Shown piece after piece: positions 24,124 to 33,959 of a stretch of 64,000 nt of DNA. Under the pieces are notes generated by a model. The model was not told the DNA's origin and searched no databases. It saw only the letters and a list, made by a program, of their open reading frames with translations. Position numbers and translations under genes: made by a program. Origin of the DNA: Methylacidimicrobium sp. B4 (GTDB lineage: Bacteria > Verrucomicrobiota > Verrucomicrobiia > Methylacidiphilales > Methylacidiphilaceae); NCBI RefSeq assembly GCF_017310545.1, contig NZ_CP066203.1:62001-126000 (forward strand), given 5' to 3'. Position 1 is the first letter of the stretch. Each line of letters begins with the position of its first letter.

Positions 24124-24567
24124 TCAGTAAGGCTTATACGGGAGAAACTTCCCGCTCATCTCGATCCGGACCCGGTCACCTTGCGGGTCAGGCTCGCGGG
24201 CCACGTGCATCCGGAAGTCGACCGCGCTCATGATGCCATCGCCAAACTCCTCGTGGATGAGCTCCTTGAGCACCATTCCGTAGACCAAGAGGATCTCATG
24301 GAAACGATAGAGGAGCGGATCGGTGGGGATGGTGGTCGGCAGAGAGCCCTTGTACGGGACAGCCTGCAAGAGGGCCTCCGCCTCGTCCGGCAGGTCCAAG
24401 AGGATAGTTAGGGCCCGAGCCTGCTCGCTCGTCATCGCCATCTGGCCTAGGCAAGCGGCAGCCACCCACTCCTTGCTTTTCCCGAGCGTGCGGGCGATCG
24501 CCTCCCATCGGAGGCCTTTTTGTGCCTTTGCCGTGAGGATGATTCGGGTGAGTTCCGATCGGGTCAC
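24124..24567 (-). CDS. cynS: cyanate hydratase (cyanase)
   Basis: Cyanase converts cyanate and bicarbonate to ammonia and CO2. The 147-residue product compares with about 156 in E. coli. It has the N-terminal helical domain (LTAKAQKGLRWEAIARTLGKSKEWVAAACLGQMAMTSEQA) and the catalytic C-terminal domain with PLLYRFHEILLVYGMVLKELIHEEFGDGIMSAVDFRMHV, which contains the catalytic Arg and Glu region and the Ser of GIMSAVDF. It ends SGKFLPYKPY, close to the family end. The start is GTG 24567 with GGAGGA eight bases upstream. No cynT or cynR lies nearby. The gene begins 40 bp after a tRNA-Leu on the same strand and could share its transcript. Confidence 0.95.
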   Translation of the reverse strand: MTRSELTRIILTAKAQKGLRWEAIARTLGKSKEWVAAACLGQMAMTSEQARALTILLDLPDEAEALLQAVPYKGSLPTTIPTDPLLYRFHEILLVYGMVLKELIHEEFGDGIMSAVDFRMHVAREPDPQGDRVRIEMSGKFLPYKPY

Positions 24568-24607
24568 GATAGCTTCCTCCGCGCGAAGCGATCCTGCCTG
24601 AGACGGC

Positions 24608-24689
24608 TGCGCTCGAGAGGACTCGAACCTCCACGGGTTGCCCCACAAGCACCTCAAGCTTGCGCGTCTGCCGGTTCCGCCACGAGCGC
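24608..24689 (-). tRNA. tRNA-Leu (anticodon GAG)
   Basis: The minus strand folds as a class-II tRNA of 82 nt. The acceptor arm GCGCTCG (24689-24683) pairs with CGAGCGC (24615-24609), with discriminator A at 24608. The anticodon stem CAAGC/GCTTG closes the loop TTGAGGT, giving anticodon GAG. A short variable arm and the T arm GAGG-TTCGAGT-CCTC follow. This decodes CUC leucine codons. The CCA end is not encoded. Confidence 0.95.
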
Positions 24690-24813
24690 ATGCGTCCGAC
24701 GTAACGGACACTCTACTTACGGCCGGAACGTCCGCGCAACCAAAAAGCCGGCTCGATCCGGGAAATCCGCGGAGGGAGGCATCGCCGCCTTGTCACTCTC
24801 CGTACCCCTTGAT

Positions 24814-25923
24814 ATGAGGGAGGTTGTGAAGATCAAGGGTCGTTTCGTCTTCGGCTTCCGGCACGGGAGAGGATGGGCCATCGCCGCGGTAATCGCGGCT
24901 GCATGGCTTTTCTCGGGGAATCGGGGAGATGCCGCCACCGCCTACGTGAGCTCGGAGCCGTTCGGAGTGGTCGCAATCGACCTGGGGAAGATGACGGTGA
25001 TTCGGCGCTTTGCCCTTCCGAAGTCGAGCCCGCGGGGAATCGGAGTCACTCGGGATGGCCGCTTTGTCGTGACCGCGAACAAGGCCAGCCAGGACGTTGC
25101 GGTGATCGACCTCAGGAGCGGGCATCTGGTGCGGCGGATTCCAATCGGCCCCAAGCCCGAGTTCCTCAAGTTTAGCCCGGACGGACGGCGTTTCTTTGTC
25201 GCCCATGAGCCGGCTTCAGAGGGTGCGCCGCCCAAGCGACCGCCGAGCGAGGAAGAGAGGAAGATGCAAGAAGCGGCGGCGGCAAGGACCCCCGCACGGA
25301 TCGTCGAGATCGACGTCGAAAGCTGGAAGGTCGTGCGGAGCTTTCCCGCGAGCGTCGATACCGAGGGGATCGAGCTTTCTGCTGACGGGAAAAGGCTCCT
25401 GTGCGCGAACGAATCGGAAGATTCCCTGCGGGTCTACGACTTGGAGAGCGGGAGCGAGCTGCAGCGTGTCGACCTCCGGCCCTATGGAAGCCGTCCCCGA
25501 GGAGTCAAGCGCTCGCCTGACGGGAACGAGTACCTGGTTTCGCTCGAGAGCTCGGGCAATGTCGTCGTGCTCGACAAGGATCTCCACTTCGTCGCTTCGG
25601 TACCGACCGGGGCTGGCCCGTATGGAATTTCTTTTGATCCGGAAGGTAAATATTTCCTCGTGGCCGCGTCTCGCGCCAGGAAGCTGCAGGTCTTCGACGC
25701 CAAGAGCCGGAAGCTGGTTCGGGAGATGCCTGTGGGAGAGCGTTGCTGGCATTTTACCTTTACACCCGACGGAGAGAAGATCTTGGCCGCCTGCGGGCGT
25801 TCCAACGAGGTGCTGGTTTTCGACGCCAGGAGCTATCGGCTGCTCAAGGTCTTGGGAGGAATCCGCTTGCCTTGGGGGGTCTTCGCCTACCCCCGCGCCT
25901 ACGGGACCCTCGATCTTCCCTAG
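24814..25923 (+). CDS. PQQ-associated YVTN-type beta-propeller protein
   Basis: The product is about 369 residues with a signal-anchor or signal peptide (GWAIAAVIAAAWLFSGNRGDAA), so it should be periplasmic. It then shows repeating blades such as ATAYVSSEPFGVVAIDLGKMTVIRRFALPKSSPRGIGVTRDGRFVVTANKASQDVAVIDL, each with the VxViD strand of YVTN/NHL-like propellers. Proteins of this kind are often found beside PQQ-dependent alcohol dehydrogenases, and this one is 5 kb from xoxF. I infer a helper role in methanol oxidation, not proven. The start is uncertain between ATG 24814 and GTG 24826. It is convergent with the secreted unknown at 25930. Confidence 0.75.
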   Translation: MREVVKIKGRFVFGFRHGRGWAIAAVIAAAWLFSGNRGDAATAYVSSEPFGVVAIDLGKMTVIRRFALPKSSPRGIGVTRDGRFVVTANKASQDVAVIDLRSGHLVRRIPIGPKPEFLKFSPDGRRFFVAHEPASEGAPPKRPPSEEERKMQEAAAARTPARIVEIDVESWKVVRSFPASVDTEGIELSADGKRLLCANESEDSLRVYDLESGSELQRVDLRPYGSRPRGVKRSPDGNEYLVSLESSGNVVVLDKDLHFVASVPTGAGPYGISFDPEGKYFLVAASRARKLQVFDAKSRKLVREMPVGERCWHFTFTPDGEKILAACGRSNEVLVFDARSYRLLKVLGGIRLPWGVFAYPRAYGTLDLP

Positions 25924-25929
25924 AGCCCC

Positions 25930-26724
25930 CTACCGATACCAAGCTTTCCATTCGACGTGGAGTGTCGTGCTTCCCTGGAGGGCGTAGATCCGCTGGAAGT
26001 GCCACCAGACCGTGCTCCCCTGGATTCGATAGCCGGCAGGGAGGACTCGGGTCACCTGGTTGGTGAGAAACTCCGGGAAGGTGGGCGGAGGGGCGCCCCC
26101 CATGCCGAAGGCGGGCGTCTGGCGGAAGGAGGCATACATTTTTCCAAGATCGACAATGATCCAATAGTCGTCGATGGGAGGGCGCCAGCCGCCCCATTGG
26201 ATCGAATCCTCGAAGAAATCGATCTTCTGCCGGGGATCTCGGGGAAGAACCCGTTGGAGGGCGTCGGTGCGGAGCTCGATGGTCCGGCCGCCTCGAAAGG
26301 TCGGGTACTCCCAATACCGGTTGCCGATCCTCGATACCGGAACCGATCTCCCGTCGATCCGATCCCGGTATTCGAGATAGGGTTGCTGGGGAAGCTCGTC
26401 GTGATAGGTGGGAAGCACGGCGGTGGAACCGAAGTTGCGGAACCGGTAGAGGAAAATCTCCCGCAGCAGCGGTTCACGTCCCCCGTTCTGTCCCGAAGAG
26501 AGAAAGAGCGTGTAGTACTTCCGAACGGAGAGGAGCTGAACCCTCTGTGCGCAGAGAGATGGAGCCGCGCAGAGGATCGCAAGAGCAAGGAAAAGGAGGG
26601 CCAACCGCTGCCGTGGCCAGCCCTCCGCGCGCCTTCCTTCCGGTCGCCTGGGGAGAGGGAGCGAGGCGGCCGAGAAGAAGAGCGGGGCGGCCGTTTCGAG
26701 AACGAGCCTTCCGCCTGGCTTCAT
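25930..26724 (-). CDS. secreted protein of unknown function, last gene of the xox cluster
   Basis: This 264-residue frame has an Arg-rich leader followed by LALLFLALAILCAAPSLCAQ, a signal sequence probably cleaved near residue 60. The first 40 residues may therefore be non-coding and the true start internal. The mature part has many aromatic residues and Arg (FLYRFRNFGSTAVLPTYHDELPQQPYLEYRDRIDGRSVPVSRIGNRYWEYPTFRGG and WWHFQRIYALQGSTTLHVEWKAWYR), suggesting a beta-rich periplasmic domain. I do not recognise it. It starts 25 bp after xoxG on the same strand, so it very likely belongs to the xox transcript and may serve the methanol dehydrogenase. Confidence 0.65.
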   Translation of the reverse strand: MKPGGRLVLETAAPLFFSAASLPLPRRPEGRRAEGWPRQRLALLFLALAILCAAPSLCAQRVQLLSVRKYYTLFLSSGQNGGREPLLREIFLYRFRNFGSTAVLPTYHDELPQQPYLEYRDRIDGRSVPVSRIGNRYWEYPTFRGGRTIELRTDALQRVLPRDPRQKIDFFEDSIQWGGWRPPIDDYWIIVDLGKMYASFRQTPAFGMGGAPPPTFPEFLTNQVTRVLPAGYRIQGSTVWWHFQRIYALQGSTTLHVEWKAWYR

Positions 26725-26749: not shown

Positions 26750-27253
26750 CTACCAGTTCCGAAGCTTGGGATCCCCGTGGTAGATCGAGCGAACGTAGGC
26801 GATCACCTTCCAGATCTCGTCATCGCTCATGACGCTGCCAAACGGCGGCATCGGAGCCACGACGTTCTCGCGTCCGATGCGCGTGTAGCCCTTCTTCTGG
26901 AGCTCGACGGACCCGTTCTTGATCAGCTCGAAGAGGGTCTTGTCGTCACTGCCGTAGACCCACGTATCGTTGATCACGGGCGGACACATCCCTCCGCCTC
27001 CCATGCCCCCGTGACAGCCGTTGCAGCTTCGGCTGAACCAGAGCTTTCTCCCTTCCGCAATCATCTGCGGGTTGTCGGTGTACGGGTTCTTCATCGCGCC
27101 TCCGGCGGCCGAAATGGGCGGGGGCCCGGCAGGTGTTGAGGTCGACGGGGCTGCTGCGGGCGGCTGCTGCGCGCCCGCGGCGGTCAGCCAGAGGCCGGCC
27201 AAGCCCGGCAACAGATAGCGTGTCCAAGACGTAGTGCGTTTTCCTCTCTTCAT
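26750..27253 (-). CDS. xoxG: c-type cytochrome, electron acceptor of XoxF methanol dehydrogenase
   Basis: This 167-residue protein has a signal peptide ending near TAAGAQ and a Pro/Ala linker. It carries one haem site, CNGCH at 77-81, followed by a Gly/Met-rich loop (GGMGGGGMCPP). A probable axial Met lies in VAPMPPFGSVMSDDEIWKVIAYVRSIY (M135). These traits fit the MxaG/XoxG cytochromes that take electrons from PQQ methanol dehydrogenase in the periplasm. ATG 27253 is preceded by GGAG. It follows the xoxJ-like gene by 37 bp. In Methylacidiphilum fumariolicum SolV the corresponding protein is known as a G-J fusion; here G and J are separate genes. Confidence 0.88.
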   Translation of the reverse strand: MKRGKRTTSWTRYLLPGLAGLWLTAAGAQQPPAAAPSTSTPAGPPPISAAGGAMKNPYTDNPQMIAEGRKLWFSRSCNGCHGGMGGGGMCPPVINDTWVYGSDDKTLFELIKNGSVELQKKGYTRIGRENVVAPMPPFGSVMSDDEIWKVIAYVRSIYHGDPKLRNW

Positions 27254-27290: not shown

Positions 27291-28910
27291 CTACCGGGCG
27301 GGAGGCGTAGTCTTCTTCGTCGGGCTGCTCGCTCTTTCCAAGAGGGAAGCGAGGGTTTGATAGCCCCTTTCCTGCGCGAGGGCAAGCGCCGTCTTCCCTT
27401 CACGGTTTTGCTGATCGGGACGTGCGCCCGCACGCAGAAGAAGCTCAACGACCGGCTGCCGGTTGCGAGAGACCGCCAGCATGAGCGGGGTGATTCCGGC
27501 GGGATTGGCGGCGTTGGGGTCCGCACCCTTGTCCAGAAGGATCCGAACCGTGGCTTCGGAACCGGAAGCCGCTGCAAACATCAAGGGGGTGTAGCCTCCC
27601 GGTCCGCTCTTCCCGTTCACCGGAACCCCATGAGCCAGCAGGATCTGGACGAGATCGGGATCCGAGCCGCTCGCCGCGAGAGAGAGAGGAGCCCATCCGT
27701 CCCTGGCGGTCGCGGTGGGGCTCGCGCCGTGCTCGAGCAGGAGGCGGGTCGTATCCCGACTTCCTTTGGAAATCGCGAAGAGAAGGGGGGTCCAACCCTC
27801 GCGGTCGGGCAGGTCAGGGTTGGCTCCCTTTTCCACGAGGAGTCGGGCCATTGGCCACTCTTCGGCGCGAATGGCGTTCAGGAGGGGGGTGTAGCCGAGC
27901 GGGTCTTTCTTGTCGATCGCCTTCGGGTCCTTGGCGATGAACCGCTCGGCGGCGGGAAGGTCATCCGCCGTGACACAGTCGAGCAAGGAATCATGTTCGG
28001 TCGGCGCAGCTGGAGGCGCCGCCGCAGGAGGGGAGAGGGGCTTGTAGCCACCGGAATGCGCAGGAAGATCGCCATCGACGATGCATTCCGGACAGTGGAC
28101 GAGCGGCACGCCATACTCGGTCAAGATCCGCTGGATCTCGGCCTTGTGCTCTTCCATCGCGTGGTTGAGGCCGTCACGGAGGCTCTTGTCCCCCTTGGGA
28201 ACGGCGAGCGCCATGGCATATTCGAGGGGAACGGTCTCCTCCATGGTGTTGAGCGGGGTGAGGTCGAGCGGAGCGTTCGCCTTGGCGACGTAGTAGCCGG
28301 CCAAGGGACCCCAGATCGCGCAGGCATCGAGCGTTCCCGCGATCACCTGCTCGACCTGCTCGGCGGGATGCTGCTCCGGGTGGACCCGTGAGTCGTAAAA
28401 GATGTAGTGGATGACCGTGTTGTGCTGGATGCCGTGGTTGCGGAGCGCATCACGTGCTGCCGAGGCCTGGAAGACGCCGATCCGGAGGCTCTTGAGGATC
28501 GGGTCGTCGAGGGAGTGAATGTGGAGGTTCCGATCCTTTCGGGTGACGAGAACGAAGGTCGACTTGTAGTAAGGCTTGGTCGGCAGAGCCAGCTCGAAGT
28601 CGGGAGGCATGTCGAAGAGGACGTCGCAGCGGTTTGCGTTCAGGGTCGTCCGGACAAGCCCGCGTTCGTAGTAGGTGTACCAGAAATATTCGAGCGGCTT
28701 CCCCATGGAGCGGGCGAGCAGCTCCGCGATCTTATTCTGGAATCCCTCTCCGCGGCTATTGGAAAGGGGCATGTTGCCCGGGTCGCCGCAGACCCGTAGC
28801 GGAAGCTCAGCCGGCTGGGCCCGGACGGCGGAAGGAGAAGCCAGGACGAGAAAGAGAAAGAGGGCGGACCAACCCCCGTGGACCAGTCCGCCCTTTCCCG
28901 TTAGATGCAT
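27291..28910 (-). CDS. xoxJ: XoxJ-like periplasmic binding protein fused to ankyrin repeats
   Basis: This is a 539-residue secreted protein (signal peptide ending SPSAVRA). Residues about 33-285 form a family-3 solute-binding-type domain of the MxaJ/XoxJ group: LPLRVCGDPGNMPLSNSRGEGFQNKIAELLARSMG, YTYYERGLVRTTLNANRCDVLFDMP and DPILKSLRIGVFQASAARDALRNHG. After a Pro/Ala linker, residues about 310-525 carry six ankyrin repeats of GxTPLxxAxxxG...LLLxxGAxPx type, for example GYTPLMFAAASGSEATVRILLDKGADPN. XoxJ is needed for active XoxF in other methylotrophs; a binding or maturation role is inferred. MxaJ/XoxJ proteins are normally about 280 residues, so the ankyrin tail is the oddity. It begins 21 bp after xoxF. 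Confidence 0.88.
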   Translation of the reverse strand: MHLTGKGGLVHGGWSALFLFLVLASPSAVRAQPAELPLRVCGDPGNMPLSNSRGEGFQNKIAELLARSMGKPLEYFWYTYYERGLVRTTLNANRCDVLFDMPPDFELALPTKPYYKSTFVLVTRKDRNLHIHSLDDPILKSLRIGVFQASAARDALRNHGIQHNTVIHYIFYDSRVHPEQHPAEQVEQVIAGTLDACAIWGPLAGYYVAKANAPLDLTPLNTMEETVPLEYAMALAVPKGDKSLRDGLNHAMEEHKAEIQRILTEYGVPLVHCPECIVDGDLPAHSGGYKPLSPPAAAPPAAPTEHDSLLDCVTADDLPAAERFIAKDPKAIDKKDPLGYTPLLNAIRAEEWPMARLLVEKGANPDLPDREGWTPLLFAISKGSRDTTRLLLEHGASPTATARDGWAPLSLAASGSDPDLVQILLAHGVPVNGKSGPGGYTPLMFAAASGSEATVRILLDKGADPNAANPAGITPLMLAVSRNRQPVVELLLRAGARPDQQNREGKTALALAQERGYQTLASLLERASSPTKKTTPPAR

Positions 28911-28931: not shown

Positions 28932-30794
28932 TTACTGCACGCAGAACGTATAGACCGTTCCGCCCATCGGAATGTTGTAGAACCCGTTCTCCCCGGCCAT
29001 TCCGGCGGCTCCGAGCGCACCGTAGGGATCCGCTGGGTCGAGACCCGCGGTCACCGGGAGGCCGATCCAGCCGCCGATGCCGGTCAGGACGGAAACATAC
29101 TGCTTCCCACCGACCTCAAAGGAGATCGGGTTGCCAATGACACCGGAACCGAGCTTCTGCTGCCAGAGGACCTTGCCGGTCTTCCGGTCGACCGCCCGGA
29201 ACCAGCCGTCGAGCGTTCCGTAAAAGGCGAGCCCGCCGTCGGTGACCAACGCACCGCTCCAGGTCGGGAAGCGCTCGGGAAGCTCCCAGCGAGCCTTGCC
29301 CGTGATCACGTCGAACGCCTTGAAACGGCCCATGACTCCGGGCTTTTCCGGCTTCATCAGAACGTTGGCGAAGACGTAGACGCTACCCTGGTTGGTGTGG
29401 GCGCGCTCCATCGGCTCCAGCGTCATGCCCCAGTTGTTGGTGGGAGCATAGAAGACATTGGCTTCCTTGGGGTCGACGGCGACCGGCTGCTGATCCTTTC
29501 CGCCCATGGCCGAGGGGTAGACCTGAACGGCCTTGCCGACCTCGAACGGAGAGTGCTCCTTGACCTTGACCGGGCGGCCCGTCTTCATGTCGATCTTCTC
29601 GGCCCAGGTGGCGGTCACGAACTTGTTGGCGCGGATGAGGGTGCCGTCCGTGCGGTTGAGCACGTAGCAGAATCCGTTGCGGTCGAAGTGGACCAGGCAG
29701 GGCTTCTTGGCGCCGTCGACGGTGATGTCGATGAGCACATCCTCGTTGATGCCATCATAGTCCCACTCGTCGAACGGGGTCATCTGGTAGCCCCAGACGG
29801 CTTCGCCCGTGTCAGGCTTGCGGGCAAAGATGGTCATCGACCACTTGTTGTCCCACTTCCACGGCTCATTGGCCTCTTCGTAGGTCTTGGCCTCGGTCCG
29901 GTAGCTGGGGCTCCAGAGACCGGGATTACCCGTGTTGTAGTAGACCAGCTCGAGCTTCGGATCGTAGCTATACCAGCCCCAGGCGCAGCCGCCACCCCGC
30001 TTCCACTCGTCGCCGGGATAGGTCTTCACGCCGAGATCCTGGCCAGCCTGCCCATACTCGGGATGCTTGCTGTTGAAGTCGGGGCCGAGGAGCACGTCCG
30101 AGTCGGGACCGTTGCTGTAGGCCTGCCAGACCATCTTGCCCGAGTTGAGATCGAAGGCGGCGAATCGGCCTCGCGCACCAAACTCGTCACCGCCGTATCC
30201 GGTGAAGACCTTGTCCTTGGCGATGATCGGGGCGGGAGTGCTTGTCTCACCCTTGTTGACATCGGCAAACTTGGTCTTCCAGAGCTCCTTCCCCGTGTTG
30301 GCATCCAAGCAGACGAGGTAGCCGTCGAGGGTGTTGAAGACGACCTTTCCGTCGGCGTAGGAAGCGCCACGGTTCACCGTGTCGCAGCAGGCCGTCGAGA
30401 CGGCCTTGTCATCCTGCCTCGGAACGTACTTCCAAAGGACTTCATAGGCCCCCCCCTTGGAGAGGTCGAGCGCCCAAACGATGTTGGGGTACGAGCTCAC
30501 CACGTACATGCGGTCGCCGATGACGAGCGGCTGCCCTTCGTGGCCGCGGAGCGTGCCCGTCGAGAACGACCAAGCCATATGCAGGCTCTTGACATTCTGC
30601 GTGTTGATCTGCTTCAGGGTCGAGTGTCGGGTGTTGGCGTAATCCTTGCCCGGAGCCGCCCAGTTCTTGGGATTCTCCGTGAGCTTCAATACATCGTCGT
30701 TGGAATAGGCTGACGGAATCACCGTCGCGGAACCGACCGCCAGTGCCAGGAGCATCCCGGCAGAGAGCTTCTTCCTACTTTTCGGGAACCTCAT
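28932..30794 (-). CDS. xoxF: lanthanide-dependent methanol dehydrogenase
   Basis: XoxF oxidises methanol in the periplasm with PQQ and a lanthanide ion. From ATG 30794 (GGAGGAGG nine bases upstream) the product is 620 residues with a signal peptide ending SAYS. Features seen are the vicinal disulfide Cys pair STACCD (136-137), GGDEFGARG with the metal-binding Glu, YYNTGNPG with the Asn, and FDEWDYDG. In this last motif D345 and the extra D347 are the Asp pair that marks lanthanide-using XoxF rather than calcium-using MxaF. W-motif propeller repeats (GKELWK, GKMVWQ, GEAVWG, GKVLWQ) run through the protein. The gene heads xoxF-xoxJ-xoxG-unknown and lies 335 bp after a sigma-54 regulator gene. 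No mxaI small subunit is present. Confidence 0.98.
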   Translation of the reverse strand: MRFPKSRKKLSAGMLLALAVGSATVIPSAYSNDDVLKLTENPKNWAAPGKDYANTRHSTLKQINTQNVKSLHMAWSFSTGTLRGHEGQPLVIGDRMYVVSSYPNIVWALDLSKGGAYEVLWKYVPRQDDKAVSTACCDTVNRGASYADGKVVFNTLDGYLVCLDANTGKELWKTKFADVNKGETSTPAPIIAKDKVFTGYGGDEFGARGRFAAFDLNSGKMVWQAYSNGPDSDVLLGPDFNSKHPEYGQAGQDLGVKTYPGDEWKRGGGCAWGWYSYDPKLELVYYNTGNPGLWSPSYRTEAKTYEEANEPWKWDNKWSMTIFARKPDTGEAVWGYQMTPFDEWDYDGINEDVLIDITVDGAKKPCLVHFDRNGFCYVLNRTDGTLIRANKFVTATWAEKIDMKTGRPVKVKEHSPFEVGKAVQVYPSAMGGKDQQPVAVDPKEANVFYAPTNNWGMTLEPMERAHTNQGSVYVFANVLMKPEKPGVMGRFKAFDVITGKARWELPERFPTWSGALVTDGGLAFYGTLDGWFRAVDRKTGKVLWQQKLGSGVIGNPISFEVGGKQYVSVLTGIGGWIGLPVTAGLDPADPYGALGAAGMAGENGFYNIPMGGTVYTFCVQ

Positions 30795-30864
30795 TTGGTA
30801 ACCTCCTCCGTTTGGGTTGCGGGAGTCCTGCCCGGTAGGCATTTCTCCTCAAGCTGCAAGGGAG

Positions 30865-31129: not shown

Positions 31130-32512
31130 TCACCCGGCCCCGATGCCATGTTTTTCCATCCGGTAGCGAAGGATGTCGCGAGTCATGCCCAGCTGGCGGG
31201 CGGCTTGGGAGATGTTCTGTCCCGAGGCGACCAGCGCCTCCTGGAGCAGCCGCTTTTCGATCTCGGCGAAGGAGAGTCCTTCTTGCAAGAGCAGACGGAT
31301 CGCATCACTAGCGGTGGCTAGCCCCCGCGCCGTCTCTTCGCCCAGATGTCCGAGCCAAGCAAAGTCCGCTGGCTTGAGGATTTCTTCTTTCGACCAGAGG
31401 ATTGCTTGCTCGATCGCATGCGAAAGCTCGCGAACATTCCCGGGCCAGGGGTATCTCTGCAAGGTCGCGACGGCGTCCGGAGTGAGCGTTCGGCCCATCT
31501 TCCCGTACCGGGTACCGTGGATGCGGAGGAAGTGATGGGCCAGCAGAAGGATGTCGCCAGACCGCTCCCGCAAGGGGGGGAGCTCGAGGTGAACGACGCG
31601 GAGCCGATAGTAGAGATCGGCTCGAAAGGATCCTTCCCGAATCGAAGCCTCCAGGGGCCGGTTGGTGGCCGCGAGAATCCAAGGATCGACCTTCCGATCG
31701 CGAACGCTTCCCAGTCGCCGGACCGTCTTGCGCTCGATCGCCGTCAGGAGCTTCCCTTGCAGGGGGAGGGGGAGATCTCCAATCTCGTCGAGAAAGAGGG
31801 TGCCCTTGTCTGCGGCTTCCATCAGTCCGAGCTTAGCCCCCGAGGCGCCGGTGAACGCCCCCCGCTCGTAGCCGAAGAGCTCGGTTTCCACCAGGTTTTC
31901 CGGAAGCGCCACGCAATTGATGGAGAGGAATGCCTCGTCTCGACGAAGGCTCCGATGGTGGAGGAGCCGGGCCACCACATCCTTCCCGGTGCCGGTCTCT
32001 CCGGAGATCAAAACGGTGGGGAGCCCTTGGCTTCCGTCGAGTCGGCCCAGCTGCTCGATCTTGTCGTGCAGAGAGCAAATCGCCGAGGATTCACCGATCA
32101 GGATCGGCTCGTCGAGGCTCCGGTAGTAGGCGAGCTCCTGCTTGAGGCGGACGGTCTCCTCGACCCGATCGACCAGCACGCGGAGCCGGTCGAGGTCGAG
32201 GGGCTTTTGAAGGTATTCGAAGGCGCCGAGCTTCATGACGGCGACCGCGTCCTCGACGGAAGCATAGGCGGTGAAGACTACGGCCGAGAGGGCGGGATGG
32301 ATGGCCCGCGCCCGGCGGAGGAGCTCGGGTCCCGAGAGGTTCGGTAGCCGTGCATCGAGGAGAAGCAGGTCGGGGGCGGAAAGCTCGGCCTGCCGGAGAC
32401 CCTCATCGCCGTCGAAGGCCAGAGCGACTTCGTGGCCCTGGGCCGTGAGAAGCTCCCGGATCGACCGAGCGAGGTTTCGTTCGTCCTCAACCAGGAGAAT
32501 GTTGAGCCCCAT
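31130..32512 (-). CDS. sigma-54-dependent response regulator (NtrC type)
   Basis: This 460-residue protein has three domains. The receiver domain (1-120) has NILLVEDE and the phosphoacceptor Asp in LLLLDARLP. An AAA+ domain (about 145-380) has Walker A GETGTGKD, the sigma-54 contact loop GAFTGA intact, Walker B GTLFLDEIGD and the Arg finger region. A C-terminal Fis-type helix-turn-helix (LVASGQNISQAARQLGMTRDILRYRMEKHG) follows. It should activate sigma-54 promoters when phosphorylated. Its ATG lies 26 bp inside the kinase gene, so the pair is coupled. It is the last gene before xoxF on the same strand and is a strong candidate regulator of the xox operon or the TonB receptor. Confidence 0.94.
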   Translation of the reverse strand: MGLNILLVEDERNLARSIRELLTAQGHEVALAFDGDEGLRQAELSAPDLLLLDARLPNLSGPELLRRARAIHPALSAVVFTAYASVEDAVAVMKLGAFEYLQKPLDLDRLRVLVDRVEETVRLKQELAYYRSLDEPILIGESSAICSLHDKIEQLGRLDGSQGLPTVLISGETGTGKDVVARLLHHRSLRRDEAFLSINCVALPENLVETELFGYERGAFTGASGAKLGLMEAADKGTLFLDEIGDLPLPLQGKLLTAIERKTVRRLGSVRDRKVDPWILAATNRPLEASIREGSFRADLYYRLRVVHLELPPLRERSGDILLLAHHFLRIHGTRYGKMGRTLTPDAVATLQRYPWPGNVRELSHAIEQAILWSKEEILKPADFAWLGHLGEETARGLATASDAIRLLLQEGLSFAEIEKRLLQEALVASGQNISQAARQLGMTRDILRYRMEKHGIGAG

Positions 32513-33959
32513 CGCTCCCTTCGCTGGCGGCGGGGAAGAGCAGGGTAATGCGTGTTCCCTGGCCGAACCGACTCTTCACTCTCATTTCTCCCCCATTTTG
32601 GCTAACGTACCGTTCCACGATGGCCAGACCCAAGCCCGAACCTTCGGGCCGTGTCGTGAAAAAGGGCTCGGTGACGCGAGGGAGATGCTCCTCGGCAATC
32701 CCTTCGCCATCGTCTTCGATTGCCAGATAGACCCGTCCGTCTGGCCGGACACCCGAGCTCAGCCGGATGCGGCCGCGCTCACCGACGGCCGCAAGCGCAT
32801 TCGCTAGAATTTCGAGAAGTACCTGCTCCATCTGAGCCGGATCGAAACGCACCAGCGGGAGCTCCCGGTTCAGGGAGAGATCGATCCCGACATCCTTCCC
32901 TTCGCCTTTGGCCAAGGATGGTACGATGGTTTCGGCGAGCTCATTGAGGCTGCCGATGATGGGTCTCGGAGAGAGGGGCTTGGCGAAGGCCAATAGCTGA
33001 CGGATCCTGCGGTCGAGCCGATCGGCTTCGTGGACAATTTCGCGAAGGGTATCCCCAGCCGAGGCTGAGGGGTCTGGCTTGAGGAGAGCGACTTGCGCCA
33101 GCGCCCGAATGCTGGCCAAGGGGTTGCGAATCCCATGAGCGACTGCGGCGGCGGTCGCGCCGATGGAGGCCATCCGCTCGGCCTGGACAATCTTCTGCTG
33201 CGAATCCTTGATCTCGCGTGCCATCTGGCGGAAGGCCAAGGCGAGGTCGCGGAGATCCCCCGAGAGAGGAATTTCCGGAACGACCTCGCGCTCCCCGCGG
33301 CCGATGCGCCGTGCGGATTCAACCAGGTTGCGCAAGGGACGTCCGATCCCCTGAGTGAGCCAGAGCGAGACGAGTGCCGCCAGCCCCAGTCCGGCAAGAA
33401 AGCAGAGCGGAACCAGGAGTGCTGCGGTCTCCTTGAGGAGCCGGGCCTTCTCCCGGGCCCGCTCGATGGCCCCTTGGTGAAAAAGCCGTTCGAGGGTTCG
33501 CACTGACTGACGGAACGGGCCGTCCAAGAAGGCTTCCAGAGCGTCGACTCCGGCAAAGGAAGGATCGCTCCCCGGCAGGTCGGGCCGGTCGAGAAGCTGC
33601 CGGCCATGCCTTTCGAGCAGCAGAGCATTTCCCTCGACGGCATCCAGCGCCTCCTCTTCCTCCTTCCCGTGAGCCAGGGAGCGGCAGCGGGCCAGGAGCG
33701 CGCGCATCTGATCGGCGAAGGAAAGGAACTGGGCGCGGGCCTTGGGATCCTTGCCCCCGAGCGCATCGGAGACTTCGGCGACCTCGCGCTGCGCGAAGAG
33801 CTCGAGATCGCCCAGCCGCGAAAGCTGCGCGAGATCCTCCCCCACCTGCTCGATCCGCTTCTGGCCTTGCCGCGCAATCCAGGCCGCCTCGACGGAGAGC
33901 ACCGCCGCCAGGACGAAGAAGACGCCCGAAGCGAGGCGGATCCGCGTTGCGATCTTCAC
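32487..33959 (-). CDS. sensor histidine kinase with periplasmic sensor domain
   Basis: This 490-residue kinase has a first membrane helix (LASGVFFVLAAVLSVEAAW), a mostly helical periplasmic sensor of about 140 residues with many charged residues, and a second helix (LLVPLCFLAGLGLAALVSLWL). A HAMP segment, dimerisation domain and HATPase domain follow (ILANALAAVGERG, IEDDGEGI, GSGLGLAIVERYV). The H-box reads AVAHGIRNPLASI: Gly follows the phospho-His where Glu or Asp is usual. This may change autophosphorylation or phosphatase balance. The partner is the sigma-54 regulator downstream. The stimulus is unknown; a metal, methanol or formaldehyde signal would fit the neighbourhood. Confidence 0.92.
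   Translation of the reverse strand: MKIATRIRLASGVFFVLAAVLSVEAAWIARQGQKRIEQVGEDLAQLSRLGDLELFAQREVAEVSDALGGKDPKARAQFLSFADQMRALLARCRSLAHGKEEEEALDAVEGNALLLERHGRQLLDRPDLPGSDPSFAGVDALEAFLDGPFRQSVRTLERLFHQGAIERAREKARLLKETAALLVPLCFLAGLGLAALVSLWLTQGIGRPLRNLVESARRIGRGEREVVPEIPLSGDLRDLALAFRQMAREIKDSQQKIVQAERMASIGATAAAVAHGIRNPLASIRALAQVALLKPDPSASAGDTLREIVHEADRLDRRIRQLLAFAKPLSPRPIIGSLNELAETIVPSLAKGEGKDVGIDLSLNRELPLVRFDPAQMEQVLLEILANALAAVGERGRIRLSSGVRPDGRVYLAIEDDGEGIAEEHLPRVTEPFFTTRPEGSGLGLAIVERYVSQNGGEMRVKSRFGQGTRITLLFPAASEGSDGAQHSPG

What the first reader, a model, noticed from the sequence alone, without database searches (positions are those of the whole stretch)
27291..28910. XoxJ-like protein carrying six ankyrin repeats
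XoxJ/MxaJ proteins are normally single-domain periplasmic proteins of about 280 residues. Here the domain is followed by a Pro/Ala linker and six clean ankyrin repeats, with one signal peptide for the whole chain. In Methylacidiphilum fumariolicum SolV the J part is known fused to the cytochrome G; here G is separate and the fusion partner is instead a protein-protein interaction module. The ankyrins could dock XoxF, the cytochrome or a maturation factor.
Basis: partly seen in the sequence, partly recalled or inferred. Interest (0 to 1): 0.7.

Follow-up and report, generated by a model that had tools for sequence, protein, structure and literature searches.

The report
XoxF1-type methanol dehydrogenase helper with ankyrins
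The gene makes a helper protein for a rare-earth-dependent methanol-oxidising enzyme, fused to a protein-binding ankyrin tail; the tail is not a local oddity but seems to mark one whole branch of these enzymes (XoxF1), which the papers searched here have not described.

Summary
One intact minus-strand ORF (27291-28910, 539 aa) encodes a signal peptide, a XoxJ domain (TIGR03871, over cut-off), a CxxC-GDLPAH motif, a Pro/Ala linker and seven ankyrin-type helix pairs, between xoxF and xoxG. It is intact in six Methylacidimicrobium genomes (a seventh copy is cut by a contig end), so it is no frameshift. It is absent from the sister genera, Methylacidiphilum included.

The premise that XoxJ is normally single-domain needs correcting. 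XoxJ-ankyrin proteins are widespread in Proteobacteria and Methylomirabilis. They form one J clade (100/100) and sit beside every XoxF1-clade enzyme examined (57 of 58 tree rows; the exception is cut by its contig end). No J beside another XoxF clade has them (0 of 24 loci). The same operons share a 14-residue insertion in XoxG and one of about 12 in XoxF. The ankyrins thus belong to an XoxF1-J-G module, which Methylacidimicrobium probably acquired horizontally.

Most likely role (inferred): XoxJ matures XoxF1, and the ankyrins give partner selectivity or holding. Rate covariation did not favour direct Ank-XoxF1 contact. No paper found mentions ankyrins in XoxJ.

The parts
27291..28910 (-). 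xoxJ1-ank: XoxJ fused to ankyrin repeats, 539 aa
28818..28910 (-). signal peptide, residues 1-31 (by eye, cleavage near VRA|QPA)
   Evidence: sequence
28098..28799 (-). XoxJ/MxaJ domain, residues 38-271
   Evidence: TIGR03871 274 bits; 6ONP alignment
28044..28094 (-). CxxC-x3-GDLPAH motif, residues 273-289; both Cys invariant in J-Ank proteins, motif absent from the J-only tails inspected
27996..28040 (-). Pro/Ala linker, residues 291-305, low confidence in the model and fast evolving
27321..27995 (-). ankyrin domain, residues 306-530, seven helix pairs including caps
28932..30842 (-). xoxF1, lanthanide methanol dehydrogenase; the start at 30794 (Met17) is likelier, as chain 7O6Z begins there
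29856..29891 (-). XoxF1-clade-only insertion, residues 318-329, between GNPGLW and DEWDYDG
26750..27253 (-). xoxG1, separate cytochrome cL
26852..26893 (-). XoxG1-clade-only insertion, residues 121-134, just before the conserved MP (putative axial Met)

Best explanation
This is the XoxF1-clade form of XoxJ. Shown: XoxJ in this clade carries a CxxC motif and an ankyrin tail fused once in the ancestor of the clade, encoded between xoxF1 and xoxG1, and the tail is conserved and under purifying selection. Inferred from known XoxJ/MxaJ biology: the J domain binds XoxF in the periplasm and helps activate it (cofactor loading has been proposed). Inferred here: the ankyrins are a second binding surface on a flexible tether that makes the helper selective for, or holds it to, its own XoxF1/XoxG1 partners, including in cells that also contain other XoxF/MxaF-J sets. 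Methylacidimicrobium probably acquired the whole xoxF1-J-G set horizontally; its own XoxF2 has no adjacent J or XoxG.
For: J-Ank tracks the XoxF1 clade: 57 of 58 rows, the exception (L094) running off its contig; XoxF1 stem 100*, length 0.56. The published XoxF1 marker at the residue before the metal-binding Glu is D or N in all 58 and G in all 24 others. J-Ank is one clade, 100/100; Ank and J distances correlate at 0.85. Reciprocal check in genome draws: all six XoxF1 hits (>800 bits) have a J-Ank beside them, and no other J carries Ank, including the two long frames checked; three of the six lie in the two centre genomes and a fourth is L093's genome, so two are new. Four of eight genomes probed hold J-only proteins too. 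XoxG1 and XoxF1 have clade-only insertions. A MxaF/MxaJ complex has been solved (9ISM). In M. extorquens loss of xoxJ equals loss of xoxF (PMC7391723). In M. silvestris XoxJ1 is a detected protein, 62-fold down with La while XoxF1 and XoxG1 fall sevenfold (PMC9291206; a strain of that species carries J-Ank in L108). Purified AP8 XoxF1 was a single dominant band without J (PMC8546591), which suits a transient helper.
Against: Ank branch rates, with the other parts held constant, follow only J (rho 0.38), not XoxF (0.08) or XoxG (0.18). The J-Ank orientation is undetermined (pTM 0.57), and no complex could be predicted. Methylacidimicrobium has a single xoxJ, so selectivity among several J proteins cannot be its present role there. 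The clade link could be inheritance alone.
Confidence: 0.5

Rival explanations
1. The ankyrins are an electron-transfer scaffold: they bind XoxG1, using its 14-residue insertion near the putative axial Met, and keep cytochrome and dehydrogenase together.
For: The XoxG1 insertion occurs in 51 of 52 J-Ank operons and none of 22 others. Methylacidiphilum and some Acidobacteria fuse J directly to the cytochrome, so J and G are functionally close.
Against: The partial rate correlation of Ank with XoxG is weak and not significant (0.18). In AP8 xoxJ is expressed below xoxG (PMC7907005). XoxF1 purifies without J.
Confidence: 0.2
2. The ankyrins bind something outside the F-J-G set, such as a membrane protein, a lanthanide or PQQ supplier, or a second J-Ank.
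For: Ank rates do not track XoxF or XoxG. XoxJ1 is regulated far more strongly than XoxF1/XoxG1 in M. silvestris. Ankyrin repeats are general binding modules.
Against: No third gene was seen to follow the module; the downstream ORF in the window is a Methylacidimicrobium-expanded family with only weak hits in Methylacidiphilum. Neighbours beyond F/J/G were not surveyed systematically.
Confidence: 0.2
3. The tail is a neutral or purely stabilising inherited addition with no specific partner.
For: Ank evolves faster than J (pN/pS 0.22 against 0.10; median identity outside the genus 34% against 51%). Most conserved Ank positions are ordinary repeat-framework residues. One Xanthomonas locus has the tail in a broken frame (L081).
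Against: The tail is retained across at least two phyla besides Verrucomicrobiota with no clean loss seen. Repeats 5-7 are nearly as constrained as J (pN/pS 0.14-0.17).
Confidence: 0.09
4. Frameshift or assembly artefact joining two genes.
For: None.
Against: Same ORF in independent genomes of the genus and the same architecture in about 56 loci outside it.
Confidence: 0.01

Closest known systems
XoxJ of Methylorubrum extorquens AM1 (PDB 6ONP)
   Same: Same periplasmic-binding-protein-like fold and operon role; 140 bits over residues 37-270; Z 25.0
   Different: Has no CxxC-GDLPAH motif in the aligned region and no ankyrins (284 aa); partner of a different XoxF clade (XoxF5)
MxaJ (PDB 5SV6; MxaF/MxaJ complex 9ISM)
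   Same: Homologous J domain; direct MxaF-MxaJ complex is a precedent for J binding its dehydrogenase
   Different: Ca-dependent system, no ankyrins; the equivalog model TIGR03870 is below cut-off here (136 of 258 bits)
XoxGJ of Methylacidiphilum
   Same: A J-type sequence fused to another module in the same family of organisms
   Different: There the cytochrome carries a reduced J-like part and a free XoxJ also exists; the XoxF is clade 2
XoxJ1 of Methylocella silvestris (Msil_3148) and XoxJ-Ank of Xanthomonas, Methylotenera, Hyphomicrobium, Methylomirabilis
   Same: Same J-CxxC-linker-ankyrin architecture and F-J-G order beside XoxF1; seen here in M. silvestris TVC (L108), assumed for BL2
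   Different: 44-60% identical in J outside the genus; most have an extra half repeat before repeat 1; papers call it only 'SBP'

Membership tests
XoxJ/MxaJ family (TIGR03871) | Family profile score over the curated cut-off | tested here: met
   274 bits against 212.15, residues 38-271
XoxJ/MxaJ family (TIGR03871) | Encoded beside xoxF and xoxG | tested here: met
   F-J-G order in the window and relatives
XoxJ/MxaJ family (TIGR03871) | J fold | tested here: met
   6ONP Z 25.0, 5SV6 Z 25.5
XoxJ/MxaJ family (TIGR03871) | Exported to the periplasm | tested here: inconclusive
   Signal peptide by eye only; no predictor or fractionation
XoxJ/MxaJ family (TIGR03871) | Binds and activates its dehydrogenase | not testable with these tools
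   Needs biochemistry; precedent
Ankyrin repeat domain | Tandem ~33-residue helix-turn-helix repeats over Pfam cut-offs | tested here: met
   Ank_2 130.5 of 27.3 bits; seven helix pairs; Z up to 29.2
XoxF1-clade J-Ank group | Adjacent XoxF belongs to clade 1 | tested here: met
   7O6Z (AP8 XoxF1) 1398 bits; tree; Asp marker present
XoxF1-clade J-Ank group | J domain inside the J-Ank clade | tested here: met
   100/100
XoxGJ fusion (Methylacidiphilum) | Cytochrome and J in one chain | tested here: not met
   xoxG is a separate 167-aa gene

The most novel reading that the evidence does not exclude
XoxF1 methanol dehydrogenases form a distinct subsystem with its own three matched parts: an ankyrin-bearing XoxJ1 with an invariant CxxC, a XoxG1 with a loop insertion by the haem, and a XoxF1 with an active-site-side insertion. 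The ankyrins act as an address that lets XoxF1 be matured apart from other dehydrogenases in the same periplasm.
Probability: 0.35. Interest if true: 0.7.

Novelty: new variant of a known kind. Interest (0 to 1): 0.52.

Why it matters
XoxF1 is the main methanol dehydrogenase of Methylacidimicrobium at maximum growth and a poorly understood clade elsewhere (regulated inversely to lanthanides in Methylocella, reported with Ca in Methylomirabilis). A domain that follows the clade through at least three phyla gives a simple sequence marker for XoxF1 operons and a removable part with which the open question of what XoxJ does can be tested directly. It also corrects annotations that list this gene only as a substrate-binding protein.

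Tried and rejected
Frameshift or misassembly: rejected. An isolated Methylacidimicrobium invention: rejected. Ank taken up separately from another ankyrin of the same lineage: not supported, since Ank aligns co-linearly with other J-Ank tails and its distances follow J; but raw Ank scores do not decide it, because generic verrucomicrobial ankyrins score as high (up to 133 bits). Ank-XoxF or Ank-XoxG co-evolution by branch rates: no significant signal. J-Ank look-alikes from long frames (G541 500 aa, G726 537 aa) were checked and carry no Ank. NCBIfam hits to Legionella Ank effectors and MzaA are generic ankyrin matches far below cut-off. Searches for papers joining ankyrin with XoxJ, MxaJ or XoxF found nothing relevant; the library lacks most subscription papers, so prior description is not excluded. 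The paper behind 9ISM was not found. HGT direction: Methylacidimicrobium lies near the base of XoxF1, so the donor is not identified.

Full report
What is there. The ORF at 27291-28910 (minus) is 539 codons without interruption. It reads signal peptide (1-31, by eye), XoxJ domain (38-271; TIGR03871 274 bits, cut-off 212), a CPECIVDGDLPAH motif (273-285), a Pro/Ala linker and ankyrin repeats (306-530). AlphaFold2 on 48 relatives gave mean pLDDT 90.9 but pTM 0.57: two well-folded domains whose mutual placement is undetermined, with seven ankyrin helix pairs. Foldseek and VIA-align place the halves with XoxJ/MxaJ and with ankyrins. Upstream is xoxF and downstream xoxG, on the same strand. The XoxF is nearly the crystallised XoxF1 of M. 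thermophilum AP8 (7O6Z, 1398 bits).

Within the group. Six genomes of the same genus, the window's included, hold the full ORF, and a seventh copy is cut by its contig end. Named members are strain LP2A, M. tartarophylax and M. cyclopophantes, so the window is Methylacidimicrobium. The two sister genera (Methylacidiphilum; G008) have xoxF, a plain J and a cytochrome with a reduced J-like tail. Published text agrees: XoxGJ plus a separate xoxJ in Methylacidiphilum, separate genes in Methylacidimicrobium (PMC8498564); ankyrins are not mentioned. Selection on the ankyrins is purifying (pN/pS 0.22; repeats 5-7 0.14-0.17; J 0.10; linker 0.36).

Outside the group. A scan of 84,980 species genomes with the J domain returned 80 best loci: 60 with an ankyrin tail (four from this genus), 19 plain or cytochrome-fused J, and one cut by its contig end. 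The nearest J proteins are gammaproteobacterial (Rhodanobacteraceae 60%, Xanthomonas about 55-57%), not Methylacidiphilum (42%). This set is drawn by likeness to the window's J and so leans to J-Ank; hence the reciprocal test. In 321 genomes of the gammaproteobacterial class and 289 of the alphaproteobacterial class, XoxF hits fall into two groups: six over 800 bits, all others under 610. The six have a J with ankyrins on the same contig. The other J frames found in those draws are mostly 280-460 aa; the two longer ones (500, 537 aa) proved to have no ankyrins. Three of the six lie in the two genomes used as centres and one in the genome of L093, so two are new. J-Ank is a minority of all J (4 of 42 in the first draw).

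Link with XoxF1. In the XoxF tree (82 rows) one branch (100*, length 0.56) holds 57 loci with J-Ank and the truncated L094; the remaining rows have plain or cytochrome-fused J, or, for the window genome's own XoxF2, no J beside it. The residue reported as diagnostic for XoxF1 (Asp before the metal-binding Glu; PMC8546591) is D (43) or N (15) in this branch and G in all 24 others. J-Ank proteins form one clade (100/100), Ank and J distances correlate at 0.85, and both Cys of the CxxC are invariant. XoxG of these operons has 14 extra residues before the conserved MP (51 of 52 against 0 of 22), and XoxF an insertion at 318-329. So fusion, insertions and clade go together. One ancestral fusion, then inheritance with the operon, is the simplest account. 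Methylacidimicrobium also has a XoxF2 that groups with its sister genera and has no J or close XoxG beside it, which suits horizontal gain of the xoxF1-J-G set. Because the genus sits near the base of XoxF1, donor and direction are not resolved, and loss in the sister genera is not excluded.

How it probably works. Established: XoxJ is needed for XoxF function in M. extorquens (PMC7391723), and an MxaF/MxaJ complex has been solved (9ISM). Shown elsewhere by proteomics: the XoxJ1 of M. silvestris is made, and falls 62-fold with lanthanum while XoxF1 and XoxG1 fall sevenfold (PMC9291206); J-Ank was read here in another strain of that species (L108). In AP8 xoxJ is transcribed below xoxG (PMC7907005), and XoxF1 purifies as a single dominant band. 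Together this suits a transient assembly helper rather than a fixed subunit. Inferred: the tethered ankyrins add a binding surface that makes the helper selective or holds it in place. Four of eight genomes probed also hold J without ankyrins for other dehydrogenases, which gives selectivity a purpose, though not in Methylacidimicrobium, which has a single J. A direct test by rate covariation did not favour contact of Ank with XoxF1 or XoxG1, and most conserved Ank positions are framework positions, so the partner is open.

Verdict. It is not a peculiarity of this organism but a member of a widespread, apparently undescribed variant of XoxJ that marks the XoxF1 clade. The function of the tail is unproven.

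Noticed in passing
25930-26724 (-): ORF directly downstream of xoxG without any Pfam or NCBIfam match. It belongs to a paralogous family with about 4-11 matches per Methylacidimicrobium genome and only weak matches in Methylacidiphilum; L057 (3113-3865) has a further copy just before xoxF.
   Followed up: partly
L146 (G000:C1:16726-18420): The second xoxF of the genome (XoxF2) has no J beside it, and the only close XoxG of the genome is the one in the window; how it would be matured is unclear.
   Followed up: partly
L123 5830-7128, L129 5008-6546, L132 5722-7128: Acidobacterial loci encode J with XoxG fused at its C-terminus, the reverse order of the Methylacidiphilum XoxGJ: a third J architecture.
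   Followed up: partly
28044-28094 (-): CxxC plus GDLPAH-type motif between J and the linker, Cys invariant in all J-Ank proteins aligned and lacking in the J-only tails inspected; could be a disulfide, a redox or a metal site.
   Followed up: partly
L081 5452-7511: In a Xanthomonas phaseoli genome the ankyrin half is split into another frame (broken gene or sequencing error); related Xanthomonas copies are intact.
   Followed up: no
24520-25923 (+): Beta-propeller ORF of the YncE/PQQ_ABC_repeats type close to the xox operon on the other strand.
   Followed up: no
31130-33959 (-): ORFs that look like an NtrC-type response regulator and a sensor histidine kinase upstream of xoxF (by eye), possible regulators of the operon.
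   Followed up: no
L114 1082-5587: Methyloceanibacter methanicus has two neighbouring xoxF1 genes before the J-Ank gene.
   Followed up: no
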